Virus record (IMG/VR): IMGVR_UViG_3300022658_000087
Location: 1 to 24,576 of that record
Direction: 5' to 3' (one strand)
DNA from: a virus
Length of the DNA: 24,576 nt
A program made the translations under genes and the position numbers. The notes below the pieces were generated by a model. That model was not told the DNA's origin. It did no database searches and saw only the letters and a list, made by a program, of their open reading frames with translations. Position 1 is the stretch's first letter; each line of letters starts with the position of its first letter. Positions 6,224 through 24,576 of this stretch are shown here, piece after piece.

Positions 6224-9001
6224 TCAATACCCTTGTAAAAGCGCATCCACCGTCGCTGCCACTTGCGTGCCTGCGCTGTTGATGCAGATGATGTTGGGAC
6301 CCTGCGTGGCATCCTTGTCCGTGTACTGCGCGTCGATCGCGGCCCCGCCTGACTGCAATGTGAGGTTCACATTGGTAATCACGCGGAACTTGCCGACCGC
6401 CCCCGCCAGGCGGGAGCCTGCGGCGCTGATCGGTACGCTACCCAGCCGCAGATTGATGTCGGGCACGTCCACCTGCGCCGTGAGCCGGGTGATCTGCTGC
6501 TGCAGCAAGCCTGCACCGCACACCACCTGAAACTCGTAGGGCTGCACCGTGGCCTGCACCTCGCCAGGCCATGGCAACCAGGCAGGCTTGCCAGCAAACA
6601 TGGCCGCACTTCCCGACTGAATGAACGCTGCCGAGCTGCCACCTTGCGCCCACACGGCCGCAGGGTTGCTGGGACGGTAGTTCACCTGGTACTGGCTGGC
6701 TGACACGGTGTGCAGCAGCGTCATGCGCCCAGCGCTCGCCGGGTAGAAGGTGGGCGGCGCGTAGCTGATGCCCGCATAACTCACCTGCAGTGCCGGGTCA
6801 CTCGGTACCGCACTGAGCGCACCTTGTGAAGCGCTGCCAAATGCGGCCGCCTGATTAGTGGCCACGATGTTGCCACCCGACACGCTGGCCACACCGGTGA
6901 TGGTGCCCGGCCAGCCCTGCGCCTTGTAGTCGCTCGCCTGGATGACGTTTGCAGTCGTCGCATCGCCGAGCTGGGTGACCACATAGGCACTGGTGGGCGA
7001 TTCGTTGCCATAAACGTCCACCGCCCGCAGCATGAAGGTCAGCGGCCCTTGCGGTACCACGCTGGCCTTGTAGGGGCTGTCGGTGATGATGTCGGTGTGC
7101 AGCGGGATCGCGTCCACCCAGCTCCGGTTGTTGCCGTACTGATACTTGATGCGGTACCCGGCCAGCAGCGTGCTGGGGTAGGTAACCGCCGTCCAAGTGA
7201 AGGTGTCAGCACCGTCAAACACAAAGCTGCTGACCGCTGGCGGTGGCAGCTTGAGCATGTAGCCGGTGGGCGTATAGCTATACGCAGGCACATCAAACAG
7301 CGCCTGCTCACCACCGCCATACACGTTAAAGCTAGTGAATTTGAAATACACCGGCTTACCCACTTGGCTAGGCTGAAGCGGGTCGCTTTTGGCAACTGCA
7401 CTGTCCACCCGCACCACGGTTGCCTGATTGGCTGCACGCGCCTTTGGCGTGGTGTAAAACGCCCCACGGGTCAGGGTGGTCAGGTTGTAGGCGTTGGCAC
7501 CGGTGAGTGCAGCCGTTTGGTAGGCCAGGTACTCACCACCCTGCGCATCGCCCACGAACACCAGCGTTTCGCTGTTGGCAGCATCGGCCGCGCTGCCGCT
7601 CAGCAAGGTGCCACCTTGCCCGGTCAAGGCCACACCCAAGGTATCTGTGCCTAATGTTCCAAGGGCTGCGCTCAGAGCACCGTAGCGGGTGCCACCACGT
7701 ACCGTGCCCACCTGCCGGTAGCTCACCCCGTCATTGCTGGCCCAGATCCGGCAGCCGCCCCACAGGGATGTGAGGCCACTGAGTGCAATCCATACCTCCA
7801 GGCCAGTGGTGGTGAGCTGCACAGGTGGCTCAAAAAAGAACGGCAGCGAAACGTCTCCGGGCGAGGCGTTGTAATTGTGAGCAAAGCCGGAACCGGCCTG
7901 CACGCCATACGCGGGTGCGCTGGCCATGCCGATCGGGCAGTCTTCGGCTTCCACATCAAAGTCGCCGCCTTCCAGCTCGGACACCTTGTTGATGCGCACC
8001 GGGATACGTGTGAGAGCCAGGTAAACGTCGGACACAGTGACCAGATCCAGCGGCTCCAGCAGGCCGAACGTCCAGGGCAACTGAAAGCGATAGAGGTTGC
8101 GCACCCCCAGCTCGCGCTGCAGCAGCAGGGACACCAGCATTTGCGCCACAGCAGGGTCGCATATGGCGTGGGCCTCGACCACTTCCTTGGTGCGCAGGCC
8201 CCGGCGCTCGATGTCGGCTGCATCCTTGGCTTCGGCCACTTCCAGGTTGTACTGGTTGTTGCGGTTGCTGTATTCCAGCCGCACATGGTTGTAGGTGTCG
8301 TCGTTGGCGCGCCGCTCGATTTTGAGCGGATCGTCATCACCGCTGCCCACCAGGAAGTGATCGTCGGTGAGGTCATACACCGGGGTGATCGTGGGCGAGA
8401 AGCTAGCACCGTTGGCAGCACAAGATGCGTCGCCCAGCGGAACGAACTTGAGCATGCCCTGCGACCAGGTCACATCGGTGTTGCTCAGCGACAGCAGGTA
8501 CTGCAGCCATTCGGCCGCTGGCTTTTGCTGCACCAGCGCCGGGCTCATGAGCAGGTTTTGCGCCAGGGCATAGTTGCTCCAGGCGGCATAGCTGCCTGCC
8601 CGACTAGCGGGAAAGTTGGCACCGTAGCGGGCATTGGTGAGCAGATCCTGCGCGATCGCGGCCGGATTGGCATCACCGCTGGCCACCACCTCCCATGGTG
8701 TGCTGACCTCAAAGCTGTGGTTTGACACCGTGGCATCACTGCCCAGGTCGTAGGCAGGCGCGTACACGTAGGTGAAGCCGTTGTAAGCCAGTGCCTGCGC
8801 CGGGTAGTTGCTTTGCAGAAAGCCCCAGACCGCCTGACCGGGTGCGCCGGTGGCAAGGCCCAGGCCCATGGCCGCATGCGCGCCTACACCGGCACCTGTG
8901 ACCTGGTACTGGATGGTGACTTGCTGACCGATCAGGCCAGCGGCAAAGGTGTATTGCCCACCCGAATTGACTGTGTAATCAGACCCTTGCTTGAGCAACA
9001 T
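6224..9001 (-). CDS. Tail tip hub / host-specificity protein, main part
   Basis: The frame is open from about 9103, but the residues before 9001 look like noise. The ATG at 9001 has GGAG eight bases upstream, and the upstream fragment stops at 9003-9005. This start gives 925 residues. The sequence has the style of the large tail protein following an NlpC peptidase: LLKQGSDYTV, GQAVWGFLQSNYPAQALAYNG, a long beta-rich body, and fibronectin-like segments in the second half (for example PPPAVSSFVFDGADTFTW). It forms the tail tip that contacts the host and helps eject DNA. The N-terminal 155 residues are in another frame, so the protein is either split, frameshifted or made by reinitiation. Confidence 0.85.
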   Translation of the reverse strand: MLLKQGSDYTVNSGGQYTFAAGLIGQQVTIQYQVTGAGVGAHAAMGLGLATGAPGQAVWGFLQSNYPAQALAYNGFTYVYAPAYDLGSDATVSNHSFEVSTPWEVVASGDANPAAIAQDLLTNARYGANFPASRAGSYAAWSNYALAQNLLMSPALVQQKPAAEWLQYLLSLSNTDVTWSQGMLKFVPLGDASCAANGASFSPTITPVYDLTDDHFLVGSGDDDPLKIERRANDDTYNHVRLEYSNRNNQYNLEVAEAKDAADIERRGLRTKEVVEAHAICDPAVAQMLVSLLLQRELGVRNLYRFQLPWTFGLLEPLDLVTVSDVYLALTRIPVRINKVSELEGGDFDVEAEDCPIGMASAPAYGVQAGSGFAHNYNASPGDVSLPFFFEPPVQLTTTGLEVWIALSGLTSLWGGCRIWASNDGVSYRQVGTVRGGTRYGALSAALGTLGTDTLGVALTGQGGTLLSGSAADAANSETLVFVGDAQGGEYLAYQTAALTGANAYNLTTLTRGAFYTTPKARAANQATVVRVDSAVAKSDPLQPSQVGKPVYFKFTSFNVYGGGEQALFDVPAYSYTPTGYMLKLPPPAVSSFVFDGADTFTWTAVTYPSTLLAGYRIKYQYGNNRSWVDAIPLHTDIITDSPYKASVVPQGPLTFMLRAVDVYGNESPTSAYVVTQLGDATTANVIQASDYKAQGWPGTITGVASVSGGNIVATNQAAAFGSASQGALSAVPSDPALQVSYAGISYAPPTFYPASAGRMTLLHTVSASQYQVNYRPSNPAAVWAQGGSSAAFIQSGSAAMFAGKPAWLPWPGEVQATVQPYEFQVVCGAGLLQQQITRLTAQVDVPDINLRLGSVPISAAGSRLAGAVGKFRVITNVNLTLQSGGAAIDAQYTDKDATQGPNIICINSAGTQVAATVDALLQGY

Positions 9002-9002
9002 A

Positions 9003-9470
9003 TCAAGCGCTCCATGAACCTGGGTCCCAGGCTTCGCTGCGCGAGTCGGTGACCTGCGCGTTTTGTAAAAAGCTGGCTGCTTGCGAAACGGTGACAACGC
9101 CACCAGGCGGCACCGTTACCATCTCTGTGATGGTGCGAGGCACGCCGCTGGTGAGCTGCACGCCGTCATACCGCTGCTTGCCTTTCCAGCCGGAAATAAT
9201 CGAATTGATCGGGCCTTCGCCCAGGATCATGAGCACCGCCGCCGTGTAGGTAAAAGAGGTGTTTTCGGACTTGACGCCGCCACCACCTTTGCCACCGGAA
9301 CTTTGGGTGCTGGTGTGTGGAATGGCAGTGAAGCCGCCATACCAAGCCAAGTTGCCGCTCACGCGGGCCCGGCCGTAGATCAGCGGAATGGCCGAGCCGT
9401 AGACCGCTGTTTGCACCCGCAGGTTGCCCGCTGCGGGTTCGACGTTGCTGATGGTTTGACCGCCACTCAT
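9003..9470 (-). CDS. Tail tip hub protein, N-terminal fragment
   Basis: The 155-residue reading frame starts MSGGQTISNVEP and includes PLIYGRARVSGNLAWYGGF, a Gly/Lys-rich stretch (GGKGGGGVKS) and YTAAVLMILGEGPI. This is the usual beginning of the GTA/lambda-J-like tail tip protein that follows the NlpC peptidase. It ends in an atypical tail (SEAWDPGSWSA) at a TGA. The rest of the protein continues in the frame one base later. The junction lies at a short palindrome, CCTGGGTCCCAGG (9019-9031). One extra base, or two missing bases, would explain the break. Start and stop positions fit tight coupling with the upstream peptidase gene (two-base gap). Confidence 0.8.
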   Translation of the reverse strand: MSGGQTISNVEPAAGNLRVQTAVYGSAIPLIYGRARVSGNLAWYGGFTAIPHTSTQSSGGKGGGGVKSENTSFTYTAAVLMILGEGPINSIISGWKGKQRYDGVQLTSGVPRTITEMVTVPPGGVVTVSQAASFLQNAQVTDSRSEAWDPGSWSA

Positions 9471-11451: not shown

Positions 11452-13941
11452 TCAGTACGCGAAGTCGCGCTTACGACCGGCCAGCACTTTTACCAAGGCG
11501 TCGCCGTTGTCTCGGAAGAGGCGAGCCACACTCTGGGCATCGGTGGCATGCACATGAAGCGTGTAGCTGTCGCCACCCGAACCACCCGGCCCTTCATCGG
11601 CCAGGTTGCGGATGACGTCAGCATGCTTGGCGGGCAAGATCATTTCGCGGGCGTGGGCTTGCACGATGGGGTTAACCGATCCGGGGATGTCGTAACCACC
11701 TGACGCGCTCGCCATGGGAGCGAACGACATCGCTGCAGCGGCCATGGCTGCACCAAAGCCAGGCGCGGCCATGTTTAAGGGAAACGGCGCGGCCGCCATA
11801 CTGGCGACACCACCGGCCCCTGCCTCTGCCGCTTTTTCCGCGATCGTGGACTGCGCGGCCACCTTGCCCAGAATCAGGTTCTTGATGTGCACCATCAACC
11901 AGTCTGCGGCGATCTTGGCCAGCGCCTGGCTCACCGCCTGGGTGATAGATTGCCATAAACCCTGAAACACGCCACGCAACGTGAGACCGCCCTGCAGCGT
12001 CTTTTGAAAGACGCTCTGGAAGCCGGTGCCCATCGTATTGATGACGTCCAACGTGTAGCGCTGAGATTCCTTAGTAGCCTGGTTGCGGATCTCACTCAAA
12101 CGCGCCTGGTGCTCACGTTCGGCCTGCTCAATCATCTGGTGGATGCGCTCGATCTCCACCGGGTTCTTGTCGGGATCTGCCTGGGCAATGCGCTCGCGCT
12201 CTTTCAAGCCTTCCAGCGCAATCGCACTGCGGCGATTCTCGAAGGCCTCCAAACGCTGCAGCATGTCTGCCTGAGTGATGGTGCCCAAATCACGCTCAAG
12301 CTGCGCTTGCATCTGCTCAGCCTGCACCTCGGCCAGTTGGGCATCGCGAGCTGCTTGGGCGCGATCCATGTCGATCTGCTTGAGCTGCTCGACCGCCAGC
12401 CGTTTGGTGGCCACGATCTTCTTCTGGACTTCCTCGTACTCTTTGCTCTCAGCGCTATAACGATCTTTTGCCAGCGCCAATTCTTTATCGAGGATTTCCA
12501 ACCTTGCATTCGTGTTGGTTTTATATGCTGCCTCTTGAGCAACAAACGCGGCCATCTTGTGGTTGTAGTCATCCTGCACCAAACCAAGCTCTAGATCAGC
12601 GACCTTGCGCCTCACAGCGATGTTTTCAGCGCTCCCATCTTTGGTTATGGCAACTTTGTCTTGCCAGAATTTCAACTCAGCCTGTTTACTAAACTGAGCT
12701 AGAGAGCCTTCCAAGTTCATGCGCTCTTGATAGGCCAACTTTTGCTCAGCCAGCTGGGCTTCCCACAACCCGGTGCGTGGCGTTTCCTTGGTAGTGCCGT
12801 TGGACTTGCCGAAGTCCCCCATGGTCTTGGTGCCAGACTTCGGACCCGCCACGGCCGTCTTGTCGCCGTACAGCCGCTCCATGTGGCGCTTGACTGCATC
12901 GCCGGTTTCATTGCCCACATCCAGAAAGTTCTGGAAGGCACCGCTGAAGGCTTGGCCGACACGCGTACCGACCTGCTTTGCAGACTCGTAAGCGCCGCTG
13001 AAGTCACCGGCAAACAGCTTAGCGAACACATCGCCGATAAGGCCAGCGCCATCCACGATGAGGCTGAAGGCTTCAAAAATTACGCCCGCCACTGTCTTGA
13101 CGGCACCCTTCACCACCTCGAAGACGGCCAGCAGGCCCATCATCGCGCCCTTGAAGACTTGCACCACATAGGGCCCGGTGCTGGCAAAGTACTCAGCCAA
13201 CTCGGTGAACACTGGCATGACGGCATCACCGATGGTTTTCTTGACTGCCGTGAGCACATCGCCCACGTCATTCATAGCCATCTTGTAGGCCTTGCTGGCA
13301 GCGACGTTGTCTTGACTGATCGTCAGACCCAGCTCTTCGTTCTTCTTGCGCGCATCTTCCAGCACACCCGTGTTGAGCTTCTGGAACTTCATCACGTCAT
13401 CGATGCTCTTGCCGAAGAGCGTCTGAGCGTAGGTGTTCTGGTCGAGACCAGCCTTGTATTCACCCACCGAGTGCAGCGCCTCATTGAAAAGCGTGTTGCT
13501 GTCGCGCAGGTTGCCATTGGCATCGCGCGTCTGGAGGCCGAGCGATTGCAGGCCTTCTTCATTGCTCTTGAGCTGGCGAGCAAACTTGGTGAAGGTGGCG
13601 ACATAGTCGTCGCCATTGCTGCCAATGTCGTCCAGCGCGGTGCGCAGTGTGGCGGCTTCCTCGCCGGTAATGCCCAGCATCTTGCTGAGCTTCATGGTCT
13701 CGCCGGTAAGCTGGTTGCTGGCAGAGATTGCTTCCTTGAAAAAGGAGCCACCAGCGACCAGCCCGGCCAGGATGAGCAGCTGCTTTTGCACCGCACCGAA
13801 AGCATCGCCCACCTTTTTGAAGTTGCTCTCGATATTGCTGGCCGCATTCTTTGCAGAGTCGGCAGCATCACGCATGCCCTTCTCGAAGGGTGAGGCGTCT
13901 GCACTGACGCCATAGGCAACGGTTTTATCGGTATCAGCCAT
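11452..13941 (-). CDS. Tail tape measure protein
   Basis: The 829-residue product is the largest protein of the central tail region and sits right after the chaperone pair, as expected. It begins with an amphipathic helix-rich region (residues 1-55) followed by a hydrophobic stretch near 55-68. A second set of hydrophobic segments lies at about 255-310. A long coiled-coil zone rich in Glu, Gln, Arg and Lys spans about 390-640. An Ala/Gly/Met-rich hydrophobic part lies around 700-745. The start ATG has AAGGAAG upstream and overlaps the chaperone stop by eight bases. It sets tail length and leaves the tail on infection. At roughly 1.5 angstrom per residue this length suggests a tail near 120 nm, which is only an estimate. 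Confidence 0.92.
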   Translation of the reverse strand: MADTDKTVAYGVSADASPFEKGMRDAADSAKNAASNIESNFKKVGDAFGAVQKQLLILAGLVAGGSFFKEAISASNQLTGETMKLSKMLGITGEEAATLRTALDDIGSNGDDYVATFTKFARQLKSNEEGLQSLGLQTRDANGNLRDSNTLFNEALHSVGEYKAGLDQNTYAQTLFGKSIDDVMKFQKLNTGVLEDARKKNEELGLTISQDNVAASKAYKMAMNDVGDVLTAVKKTIGDAVMPVFTELAEYFASTGPYVVQVFKGAMMGLLAVFEVVKGAVKTVAGVIFEAFSLIVDGAGLIGDVFAKLFAGDFSGAYESAKQVGTRVGQAFSGAFQNFLDVGNETGDAVKRHMERLYGDKTAVAGPKSGTKTMGDFGKSNGTTKETPRTGLWEAQLAEQKLAYQERMNLEGSLAQFSKQAELKFWQDKVAITKDGSAENIAVRRKVADLELGLVQDDYNHKMAAFVAQEAAYKTNTNARLEILDKELALAKDRYSAESKEYEEVQKKIVATKRLAVEQLKQIDMDRAQAARDAQLAEVQAEQMQAQLERDLGTITQADMLQRLEAFENRRSAIALEGLKERERIAQADPDKNPVEIERIHQMIEQAEREHQARLSEIRNQATKESQRYTLDVINTMGTGFQSVFQKTLQGGLTLRGVFQGLWQSITQAVSQALAKIAADWLMVHIKNLILGKVAAQSTIAEKAAEAGAGGVASMAAAPFPLNMAAPGFGAAMAAAAMSFAPMASASGGYDIPGSVNPIVQAHAREMILPAKHADVIRNLADEGPGGSGGDSYTLHVHATDAQSVARLFRDNGDALVKVLAGRKRDFAY

Positions 13942-14266
13942 GGGCTTCCTTCATTGCGGCATCGAAGGCCGCTGTGTCCAGCGCGGCCACCTGACGGATG
14001 GGCACATTGCCCATGGAGGGCAACAGCTCATCGATATCGGTGATCGGCTGTGCAGACGTTTGGACGGGTGGCTTGTAGCCCAGATAGGACGCCACCAGGT
14101 GGTGCACCGGAGGGTGCCTTTTCCACTCGGCACGCATGGCATCTACCGTGGGCAGATCTATGTGGTCTCGGACGTAGTCCCAGGTCCAGCCGGTGTTGGC
14201 GCAGATGCTTGCGATGAGGCCTGCCCAGTCAACGGGCTCGGATGCGTCACTGACTGGGCTGCCCGG
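13934..14266 (-). CDS. Tail assembly chaperone, T-type extension (frameshift product)
   Basis: This frame encodes 110 residues after the A-run near 14267-14272, beginning PGSPVSDASEPVDW. It contains a short helical domain (WAGLIASICANTGWTW, DAMRAEWKRHPPVHHLVASYLG) typical of the second chaperone reading frame. No ATG, GTG or TTG occurs in frame before the Met near the middle of the domain. It is therefore best explained as the C-terminal extension of the upstream protein, made by a +1 or -2 frameshift. The fused product would be about 213-214 residues. In lambda the analogous G-T protein recruits the tape measure and tube subunits. It ends eight bases inside the tape measure gene. Confidence 0.75.
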   Translation of the reverse strand, partial: PGSPVSDASEPVDWAGLIASICANTGWTWDYVRDHIDLPTVDAMRAEWKRHPPVHHLVASYLGYKPPVQTSAQPITDIDELLPSMGNVPIRQVAALDTAAFDAAMKEAHG

Positions 14267-14276
14267 TTTTTTCTTC
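14223..14276 (-). promoter_or_regulatory. Probable programmed frameshift site with downstream stem
   Basis: The minus strand reads GAA GAA AAA ACC in the first frame, a run of six A at 14272-14267. Seven bases after the run a perfect 9-bp stem begins: GCCCAGTCA (14259-14251) pairs with TGACTGGGC (14231-14223), with a 19-base loop. The first frame's stop TGA (14249-14247) lies in that loop. The second frame runs one base ahead (+1, or -2). A -2 slip of the Lys codon AAA keeps full pairing with AAA. A spacer plus stem is the standard stimulator layout for phage tail chaperone frameshifts. Confidence 0.7.
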
Positions 14277-14576
14277 GGCGATCGCTTTACGCTTGATGCC
14301 AGCCACATCCAGCACGCTGCTGATGACGTCGTGCATGTTGCCCACGTCGACCAGGTCGGCAACTTCGTCGACCGTGATGTCGGGGTAGTTGCGGCGCATG
14401 GCTGAGTGGGTTGCGGCAATGACCGTATCAACGGTGGCGGGCTGCAGCGCGGTGCCTTCGTTGAGCTGGCTCAGCTTGCCCTGCAGACGCTGCAGCGCAC
14501 CCAGCGTGAGGGGCGGCACCACGTAGATGCGCCCCCCGCCGAAGTTGACCTCGATTCCGGGAATCAACTCGGTCAT
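14247..14576 (-). CDS. Tail assembly chaperone, G-type
   Basis: The 109-residue protein begins MTELIPGIEVNFGGG and has the usual small chaperone composition: a short beta start (RIYVVPPLT) and a helical middle (LGALQRLQGKLSQL, then a helical end with NMHDVISSVLDVAG). It is the normal-frame product of the chaperone pair, placed between the tail tube gene and the tape measure gene. The last residues (EEKTGQPSQ) are read only when no frameshift occurs. The non-shifted product probably predominates, as in lambda, where G is in excess over G-T. Confidence 0.85.
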   Translation of the reverse strand: MTELIPGIEVNFGGGRIYVVPPLTLGALQRLQGKLSQLNEGTALQPATVDTVIAATHSAMRRNYPDITVDEVADLVDVGNMHDVISSVLDVAGIKRKAIAEEKTGQPSQ

Positions 14577-14580
14577 GCCG

Positions 14581-15345
14581 TTACTCCGTGAAGATCAGGG
14601 AGCCCACAGAGCCGGTGACCGGATCTGCGAATGCCGAGATATCCATGTCGAGCATGCTGAAGTCATCCTGCTTCGGATCGAAGCTGAGTTTCTTCGCTGT
14701 GCAGGCACCCAGCCGGAAGTAAGCCTGCTTACCTTGGAAGCGGCAAGACAGATCCAGACCAAAGATCGGCACGGTGCCCATGGCGATGTTGTTGAAGGTC
14801 ACCGACTTGCCGGATGCCAGGGTGTAGGTGTAGGCATAGCTGATGTACACGGTCTTGGCGGTGTCTGCAGCCGCAAAGGTGTACACGGCACCGGCCAAGC
14901 TGTACTGGCCAGTGGCAGGCGCGCTGGCCACGCGCTGCATGGGCACGCCGTTGCTATCCAGCACGCCCAGGTCGCGCAGATACGTGCCGCTATTGGGTGG
15001 CGTGACGGTAATCGTGAAGGGCGTGGTGGGAATCGCCTGACCGGTCAAATCTTCCTGTGCAGCGGTCAGCGTGCCAGCGGTAAGGCCTTGTCCGAGAAAC
15101 AGGTCGTTGAAGATGCGGCCAGCGATCTGGGCGAACTTGGCCTTGACCGCCACCTTCATCTTGCCACCGCCCAGGGCAACGGGGAATGCGAGCTGGCCAT
15201 ACAGCTCTTTGATGTCGCGGTCGATCTCTAGGGAGACGTCGCTCAGCGTGCCGAACTTGATCGGCGTCGGATTGGCAATGGTGTTGCCCAGGGCGTCGGC
15301 GGTGGCAGCGCCCCAGAGGGTGCCGGTACCAAAATGGTATTGCAT
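14581..15345 (-). CDS. Major tail protein (tail tube subunit)
   Basis: The 254-residue product is beta-rich with an Ala/Gly/Thr-rich middle, typical of siphovirus tube subunits. It starts MQYHFGTGTLWGAATADALG. It contains KFGTLSDVSLEIDRDIKELYG, a pattern typical of tube proteins, and ends DADPVTGSVGSLIF-like. Its place between a tail terminator and the chaperone pair supports the call. A long internal insertion (about residues 95-170: TPPNSGTYLRDLGVLD, then an Ig-like YSLAGAVYTF) may be an exposed domain on the tube surface. AAGGA lies about eight bases before the ATG. Confidence 0.85.
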   Translation of the reverse strand: MQYHFGTGTLWGAATADALGNTIANPTPIKFGTLSDVSLEIDRDIKELYGQLAFPVALGGGKMKVAVKAKFAQIAGRIFNDLFLGQGLTAGTLTAAQEDLTGQAIPTTPFTITVTPPNSGTYLRDLGVLDSNGVPMQRVASAPATGQYSLAGAVYTFAAADTAKTVYISYAYTYTLASGKSVTFNNIAMGTVPIFGLDLSCRFQGKQAYFRLGACTAKKLSFDPKQDDFSMLDMDISAFADPVTGSVGSLIFTE

Positions 15346-24407: not shown

Positions 24408-24576
24408 TCATTTTGCACGCTCTTCACGCCCACGGGCGTACTCAACATGCAGGCGGTGCAGACGTGCGTACATGGTGCGCAGGCTGCAACCCAGGATCAC
24501 GGCGTTTTGCCGCGCGGTCTTGGATCACCGACTGCCCATAGAGAGGCTGAGACTGCCAAGGCACACAGGGGATAGG
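24408..24576 (-). pseudogene. Partial helix-turn-helix protein at the right edge
   Basis: On the minus strand the 39 codons before the TGA at 24408-24410 encode RQNAVILGCSLRTMYARLHR, then LHVEYARGREERAK. This resembles the end of a Fis-type or similar helix-turn-helix regulator. The same frame has a stop at 24525-24527. Just upstream another frame reads GQSVIQDRAAKR, which could continue the same helix, so a frameshift is possible. The gene leaves the window, so its start is unknown. It could be the late gene activator of the phage or a host regulator at the junction. Confidence 0.35.

What the first reader, a model, noticed from the sequence alone, without database searches (positions are those of the whole stretch)
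14223..14276. Tail chaperone frameshift with a perfect downstream stem, in the +1/-2 direction
The two chaperone reading frames have no usable start for the second one. The first frame reaches GAA GAA AAA ACC with six A. A perfect 9-bp stem (GCCCAGTCA/TGACTGGGC) begins seven bases later, and the first-frame stop lies in its loop. The frame offset is +1 (equivalently -2), not the -1 of lambda G/G-T. A -2 slip on AAA keeps full pairing. Minus-two shifts are rare; one is proposed in phage Mu. Such a clear stem for this class would be worth documenting.
Basis: partly seen in the sequence, partly recalled or inferred. Interest (0 to 1): 0.78.

Follow-up and report, generated by a model that had tools for sequence, protein, structure and literature searches.

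The report
Phage tail-gene frameshift, one base short
An uncultured phage carries the usual ribosome-slip signal between its two tail-chaperone reading frames, but its run of A's is probably one base short, so an ordinary minus-one slip looks like a rare minus-two slip; most likely a lost base or an assembly error rather than a new mechanism.

Summary
The sequence facts are right: six A's, seven bases, a strong hairpin, a first-frame stop in its loop, second chaperone frame at +1/-2. The direction is probably not programmed. Relatives with a securely found first part read the second by -1 in 28 of 28 rows (20 distinct), as do 12 of 12 prophage loci and 2 of 2 named phages. Only this phage differs. 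Its sister (support 99/99) has A_AAA_AAA and the same hairpin at the same codons: 11 shared pairs, 3 changed on both sides, none broken. Here the frame that the first part would have in a -1 layout is still open through the overlap and still ends at the stop used by 8 of 8 GGGAAAC relatives, through a rare ATA codon. The contig has other frame breaks: the J-like tail gene is split here but whole in 9 of 9 relatives, and the only differences from a second assembly are two one-base A-run indels. Best reading: a lambda G/GT-type -1 signal whose A-run is one short, by recent deletion or sequence error. A real -2 or +1 shift is not excluded.

The parts
14247..14576 (-). first tail-chaperone frame (G-like), 109 aa, stop TGA 14249-14247
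   Evidence: phrog_7947 E 1.6e-23 (unknown function); model's two best solved-structure matches 3klu and 2ob9 (HK97 tail assembly chaperone), Z 4.8 each, weak
13934..14266 (-). second chaperone frame (T-like), joined to the first by the shift; conserved from PVDWAGL...CANTGWTWDY on
   Evidence: phrog_8018 E 5.6e-14 (unknown function)
14267..14272 (-). A6 run, slip site; in the sister L004 the place is A_AAA_AAA
14248..14259 (-). 5' arm of the 12-bp stem (9-bp core 14259-14251)
14223..14234 (-). 3' arm of the stem, inside the codons for V-D-W-A of the second frame
14158..14160 (-). TAG in the third frame (+43 from the CANTGW anchor codon), at the place of the first-frame stop of the GGGAAAC relatives; formed by ATA GAT of the second frame
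14306..14308 (-). in-frame ATG of the second frame, upstream of the A-run
14581..15345 (-). upstream neighbour, place of the major tail (tube) protein; phrog_8234
   Evidence: E 4.3e-76 (family of unknown function); role inferred from gene order
11452..13941 (-). downstream neighbour, tail tape-measure protein
   Evidence: phrog_2854 E 1.2e-19
6224..9470 (-). J-like tail tip gene, split into 9470-9003 and 9103-6224 by a change of frame (context for sequence quality)

Best explanation
This is a lambda G/GT-type tail-chaperone frameshift signal. In this family ribosomes slip back one base on a slippery site a few bases before a hairpin, so that a fraction of the G-like protein gets the T-like extension. 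In this phage the slip site is an A-run in the place of the sister's A_AAA_AAA, but the run is one A short of giving the heptamer A_AAA_AAC in the right phase, so the second frame appears at +1/-2. The shortening is either a very recent one-base deletion (natural, perhaps in a decaying prophage) or an error of sequencing or assembly; the two cannot be told apart here. Shown: the offsets, the relatives' direction, the conserved helix, the retained stop, the other frame breaks. Inferred: that the slip itself happens, that the missing base is in the A-run, and that the shortening is recent or false.
For: (1) Direction: of 17 loci with both parts found by tblastn, 16 are -1 and the one exception is the window's own phage (L003 = G001). 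With a profile: 54 of 56 anchored rows have a first-part hit, 53 of them -1 and one +1, again this phage; at E <= 1e-3, 28 of 29 are -1 (20 of 21 distinct). 12 of 12 judged prophage loci and Pseudomonas phage KT1 and Acinetobacter phage 5W are -1. (2) Sister: L059/L004, joined to this phage at 99/99, has A_AAA_AAA, a 5-nt spacer and a 12-bp stem (z -4.96, 0 of 200 shuffles) at the same codons; 11 shared pairs: 4 same, 4 changed on one side, 3 on both, 0 broken (my count from the pairs printed). (3) Retained -1 layout: the third frame is open from -83 to +43 and ends at TAG +43, the first-frame stop of 8 of 8 GGGAAAC relatives. It is made by ATA, 8 of 274 Ile codons in this phage's other late genes; with second-frame codons redrawn synonymously the third frame is open to there and stops there in 0.39% of 200,000 trials. 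Of 7 relatives with V-D at that place but an earlier first-frame stop, 0 have a stop there. (4) Sequence quality or decay: the J-like gene is split in window and G001 but in one frame in 9 of 9 relatives that have it; window and G001 differ over 24.5 kb by 0 substitutions and two one-base A-run indels, the window shorter in both, and the one at 83 breaks the integrase frame that is open in G001.
Against: G001 and the window both read A6, so an error would have to be shared; they may not be independent. The two indels between them lie at the window's ends (83 and 24408), where assemblies are weakest; the interior is identical. The J break is of the other kind (net +1, not -1), so it does not show a bias to lost bases. 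The synonymous-codon test was chosen after I had seen the match, and 12 of 35 other relatives have a stop codon at +43 without using it (other residues there). Stems are not strong in all relatives: of 12 folded, z is below -3 in 3 and above 0 in 3, and within the GGGAAAC group only 1 of 11 pairs shows a double change, reached by 236 of 500 shuffles. The linker of this phage differs in length from all relatives, so a simple one-base difference from any one of them cannot be read off an alignment.
Confidence: 0.72

Rival explanations
1. A genuine programmed -2 (or +1) ribosomal frameshift: the lineage of this phage switched from the family's -1 to -2/+1, using AAA in the A6 run with full re-pairing and the downstream stem.
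For: A6, spacer and stem fit a backward slip; the first frame has its own stop in the loop; both assemblies read A6. -2 is used in phage Mu, and tail-chaperone shifts of -1, -2 and +1 are known among tailed phages; with the HIV cassette a shorter spacer raises -2 against -1 (passages of PMC5009743).
Against: No judged relative shares it. The third frame still carries the -1 layout. The contig has another frame break and A-run indels.
Confidence: 0.17
2. Separate initiation: the second part starts on its own at the in-frame ATG 14308 or by re-initiation, and no fusion is made.
For: An in-frame ATG exists at 14308-14306. Phage 5W's two parts are annotated as separate proteins.
Against: No Shine-Dalgarno sequence seen before it; it lies inside the first frame's conserved codons; the sister has no ATG in the corresponding printed stretch; it would not explain the conserved slip site and stem.
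Confidence: 0.05
3. Transcriptional slippage on the A6 run: a minority of mRNAs lack one A (or gain two) and so join the frames.
For: Runs of A are known slippage sites; the required fusion level in tails is low (a few percent in lambda, PMC5009743 passage: about 30:1).
Against: Known programmed cases use runs longer than seven A (PMC3711429 passage); the stem and the sister's heptamer point to the ribosome.
Confidence: 0.03

Closest known systems
lambda gpG/gpGT tail-assembly chaperone -1 frameshift
   Same: place between tail tube and tape measure genes, short alpha-helical first part, second part only as a fusion, slip site before the end of the first frame; relatives of this phage use GGGAAAC/A/G, A_AAA_AAA and similar sites
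   Different: no detectable sequence similarity to the lambda proteins was found with the libraries used; offset in this phage reads +1/-2
phage Mu -2 tail frameshift (named in the review PMC5009743, passages seen)
   Same: same offset class
   Different: not compared by sequence here; in this family the judged relatives are -1, so the offset here is an isolated state
HK97 tail assembly chaperone (PDB 2ob9) and YqbN (3klu)
   Same: the model of the first part aligns over 83-84 residues, Z 4.8, the two best rows, both phage-type tail chaperones (for YqbN this is recalled)
   Different: Z 4.8 is weak; sequence identity 10-11%

Membership tests
lambda G/GT-type tail chaperone pair | lies between tail tube and tape-measure genes | tested here: met
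   tape measure downstream, phrog_2854; upstream gene phrog_8234 is of unknown function, its tube role is inferred
lambda G/GT-type tail chaperone pair | two overlapping frames, second without a conserved start of its own | tested here: met
   a non-conserved ATG at 14308 is noted
lambda G/GT-type tail chaperone pair | -1 offset with an in-phase slippery site | tested here: not met
   offset +1/-2 in this phage and no X_XXY_YYZ heptamer in phase (L058); met in its relatives. The filing as a member therefore rests on the family as a whole, and this copy is a deviant one
lambda G/GT-type tail chaperone pair | chaperone fold of the first part | tested here: inconclusive
   model pLDDT 83; best matches are tail chaperones but Z 4.8; BFVD matches named tail assembly chaperone have E 0.015 or worse
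lambda G/GT-type tail chaperone pair | fusion protein made and needed for tail assembly | not testable with these tools
   needs expression data
programmed -2 frameshift (phage Mu class) | +1/-2 offset kept across relatives | tested here: not met
   0 of 28 secure relatives, 0 of 12 prophage loci, 0 of 2 named phages
programmed -2 frameshift (phage Mu class) | junction peptide of a -2 slip | not testable with these tools
   needs mass spectrometry

The most novel reading that the evidence does not exclude
A tail-chaperone family that is otherwise -1 has one lineage that recently lost a base in its slippery A-run and now lives on -2 (or +1) slippage at the relic -1 signal: a frameshift direction caught in the act of switching, with a -1 sister that keeps the same stem for direct comparison.
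Probability: 0.15. Interest if true: 0.65.

Novelty: new member of a known kind. Interest (0 to 1): 0.3.

Why it matters
It shows how an isolated +1/-2 offset in a metagenomic phage should be read: the direction in the relatives, the homologous stop in the third frame and the state of neighbouring genes tell a broken -1 signal from a programmed -2 one. If A6 proves real and the fusion is made, the pair window/L004 would be a neat natural test of what sets -1 against -2 on the same stem. It also describes a family of tail chaperones, filed as unknown in PHROGs, with its slip sites.

Tried and rejected
Covariation inside the GGGAAAC group is weak and is not used as proof; pairing falls from 94% to 42-51% when arms are slid, which partly reflects that the structure was taken from these sequences. 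Sequence search of solved structures with the profiles of both parts gave nothing credible, nor did Pfam for the window's own proteins (single other members reach Phage_TAC_11 at 0.0035 and Phage_TAC_12 at 0.012). Nine of the 65 loci given to one search were dropped for lack of the anchor motif (L075, L081, L084, L085, L088, L100-L103), 2 of the 56 kept had no first-part hit (L087, L095), and 25 had only weak hits (E above 1e-3), all 25 best in the -1 frame but not counted as secure. Many rows repeat one another or the contigs; the 29 secure rows are 21 distinct. L131 of the 13 loci had no first part; L120 is the same place as L002. The output was cut in the middle. Literature: passages of PMC5009743, PMC10885494 and PMC3711429 were seen, other papers only in search listings; the original Mu and lambda papers were not read.

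Full report
What is there. On the minus strand of a phage late region (terminase, portal, head proteins, tail proteins) two short frames lie between the gene in the place of the tail tube protein and the tape-measure gene. The first (14576-14247, 109 aa) and the second (frame open to 13934) match phrog_7947 and phrog_8018, both of unknown function. A model of the first part (pLDDT 83) has the HK97 tail assembly chaperone and YqbN as its two best solved-structure matches, both at a weak Z of 4.8. That they are a G/T-type chaperone pair is therefore an inference from gene order, overlap and fold.

The observation. A6 at 14272-14267, seven bases, then a 9-bp perfect stem that the fold extends to 12 bp, a TGA in its loop, and a second frame at +1/-2. 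The A6 run is the only one of its length on this strand, and 9-bp hairpins are few.

Direction in relatives. Two searches with the second part gave 18 loci, a profile search 62 (many the same contigs). By tblastn 17 loci have both parts: 16 are -1, one is +1, and that one (L003, record G001) is the same phage as the window. By profile, 54 of 56 anchored rows have a first-part hit, 53 at -1; at E <= 1e-3, 28 of 29, or 20 of 21 distinct. In 12 of 399 genomes around a Rhodocyclaceae MAG the second part was found at 13 places; 12 have a first part, all 12 at -1. Pseudomonas phage KT1 and Acinetobacter phage 5W are -1. Slip sites seen in phase are A_AAA_AAA, G_GGA_AAC and other G_GGA_AAN, and GGGGGA(A/G) runs without a full heptamer.

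The sister. In a tree of both parts (21 rows) the window's phage joins L059 (= L004) at 99/99. L004 has A_AAA_AAA, five bases, and a 12-bp stem with z -4.96. Its 3' arm lies in the same second-frame codons as here. Over the 11 positions that pair in both, 4 pairs are the same, 4 differ on one side, 3 on both sides and none is broken (read from the lists). The stem is thus an inherited -1 stimulator. Not every relative has a strong stem: of 12 folded, 3 have z below -3 and 3 are above 0, and the GGGAAAC group shows little covariation.

A retained -1 layout. In 8 of 8 GGGAAAC relatives the first frame runs on through the overlap to a TAG at +43 from the CANTGW anchor. In this phage the third frame, which the first part would occupy in a -1 layout, is open from -83 to +43 and ends with TAG at +43. 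The TAG comes from ATA GAT in the second frame; ATA is 8 of 274 Ile codons in the late genes counted. When second-frame codons are redrawn synonymously by that usage, the third frame is open to +43 in 14%, has a stop there in 2.9%, and both in 0.39%. Controls: of 35 other relatives whose first-frame stop lies elsewhere, 12 have a stop codon at +43, but with other residues there; of the 7 with V-D at that place, none. The test was framed after the match was seen. The simplest reading is that this lineage had a -1 layout until very recently, or still has it and the sequence is wrong by a base.

State of the contig. The J-like gene is in one frame in 9 of 9 relatives that have it, of 11 records besides G001 searched, but split in the window and in G001 near 9010. 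An ATG with GGAG eight bases before it follows the break, so re-initiation is conceivable. In the tblastn screen I saw no other single-gene frame break on the coding strand. Window and G001 agree over 24.5 kb without a substitution but differ by two one-base A-run indels near the window's ends, the window being shorter in both; its last 53 bases do not match G001. The indel at 83 splits the integrase frame that is open in G001. Indels without substitutions look like errors of reading rather than divergence, but both assemblies share A6.

Verdict. The signal is a member of the lambda G/GT class by descent. In this copy the A-run is most likely one base short, by a recent deletion or an error; a defective prophage would also explain the split J gene. 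A real -2 or +1 switch remains possible, since A6 allows full re-pairing in both modes and the stem is in place. Known background from passages seen: -1, -2 and +1 are all used by tailed phages, Mu being the -2 case (PMC5009743), and frame transitions that stand alone in a family are mostly errors or recent indels (PMC3711429).

Noticed in passing
window 6224-9470, minus strand: J-like tail tip gene split in two frames; 9 of 9 relatives with the gene have it in one frame. An ATG preceded by GGAG follows the break.
   Followed up: partly
window 83 and 24408: One-base A-run differences from record G001, window shorter in both; the first splits the integrase frame.
   Followed up: partly
window 24524-24576: Last 53 bases do not match G001, which otherwise matches the whole window; contig end or mosaic boundary.
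   Followed up: no
L001, L002, L016-L018, L121-L128, L130, L132: Many relatives slip at GGGGGA(A/G) runs, where only the P-site codon re-pairs fully; not the standard heptamer.
   Followed up: no
L062-L067, L069, L070: In the GGGAAAC group the first frame continues about 30 codons past the slip site, overlapping the second frame, to a TAG at the same place in 8 of 8.
   Followed up: partly
L142 (phage 5W) 650-1224: The chaperone pair of a named phage is annotated as two hypothetical proteins; its frames are at -1.
   Followed up: partly
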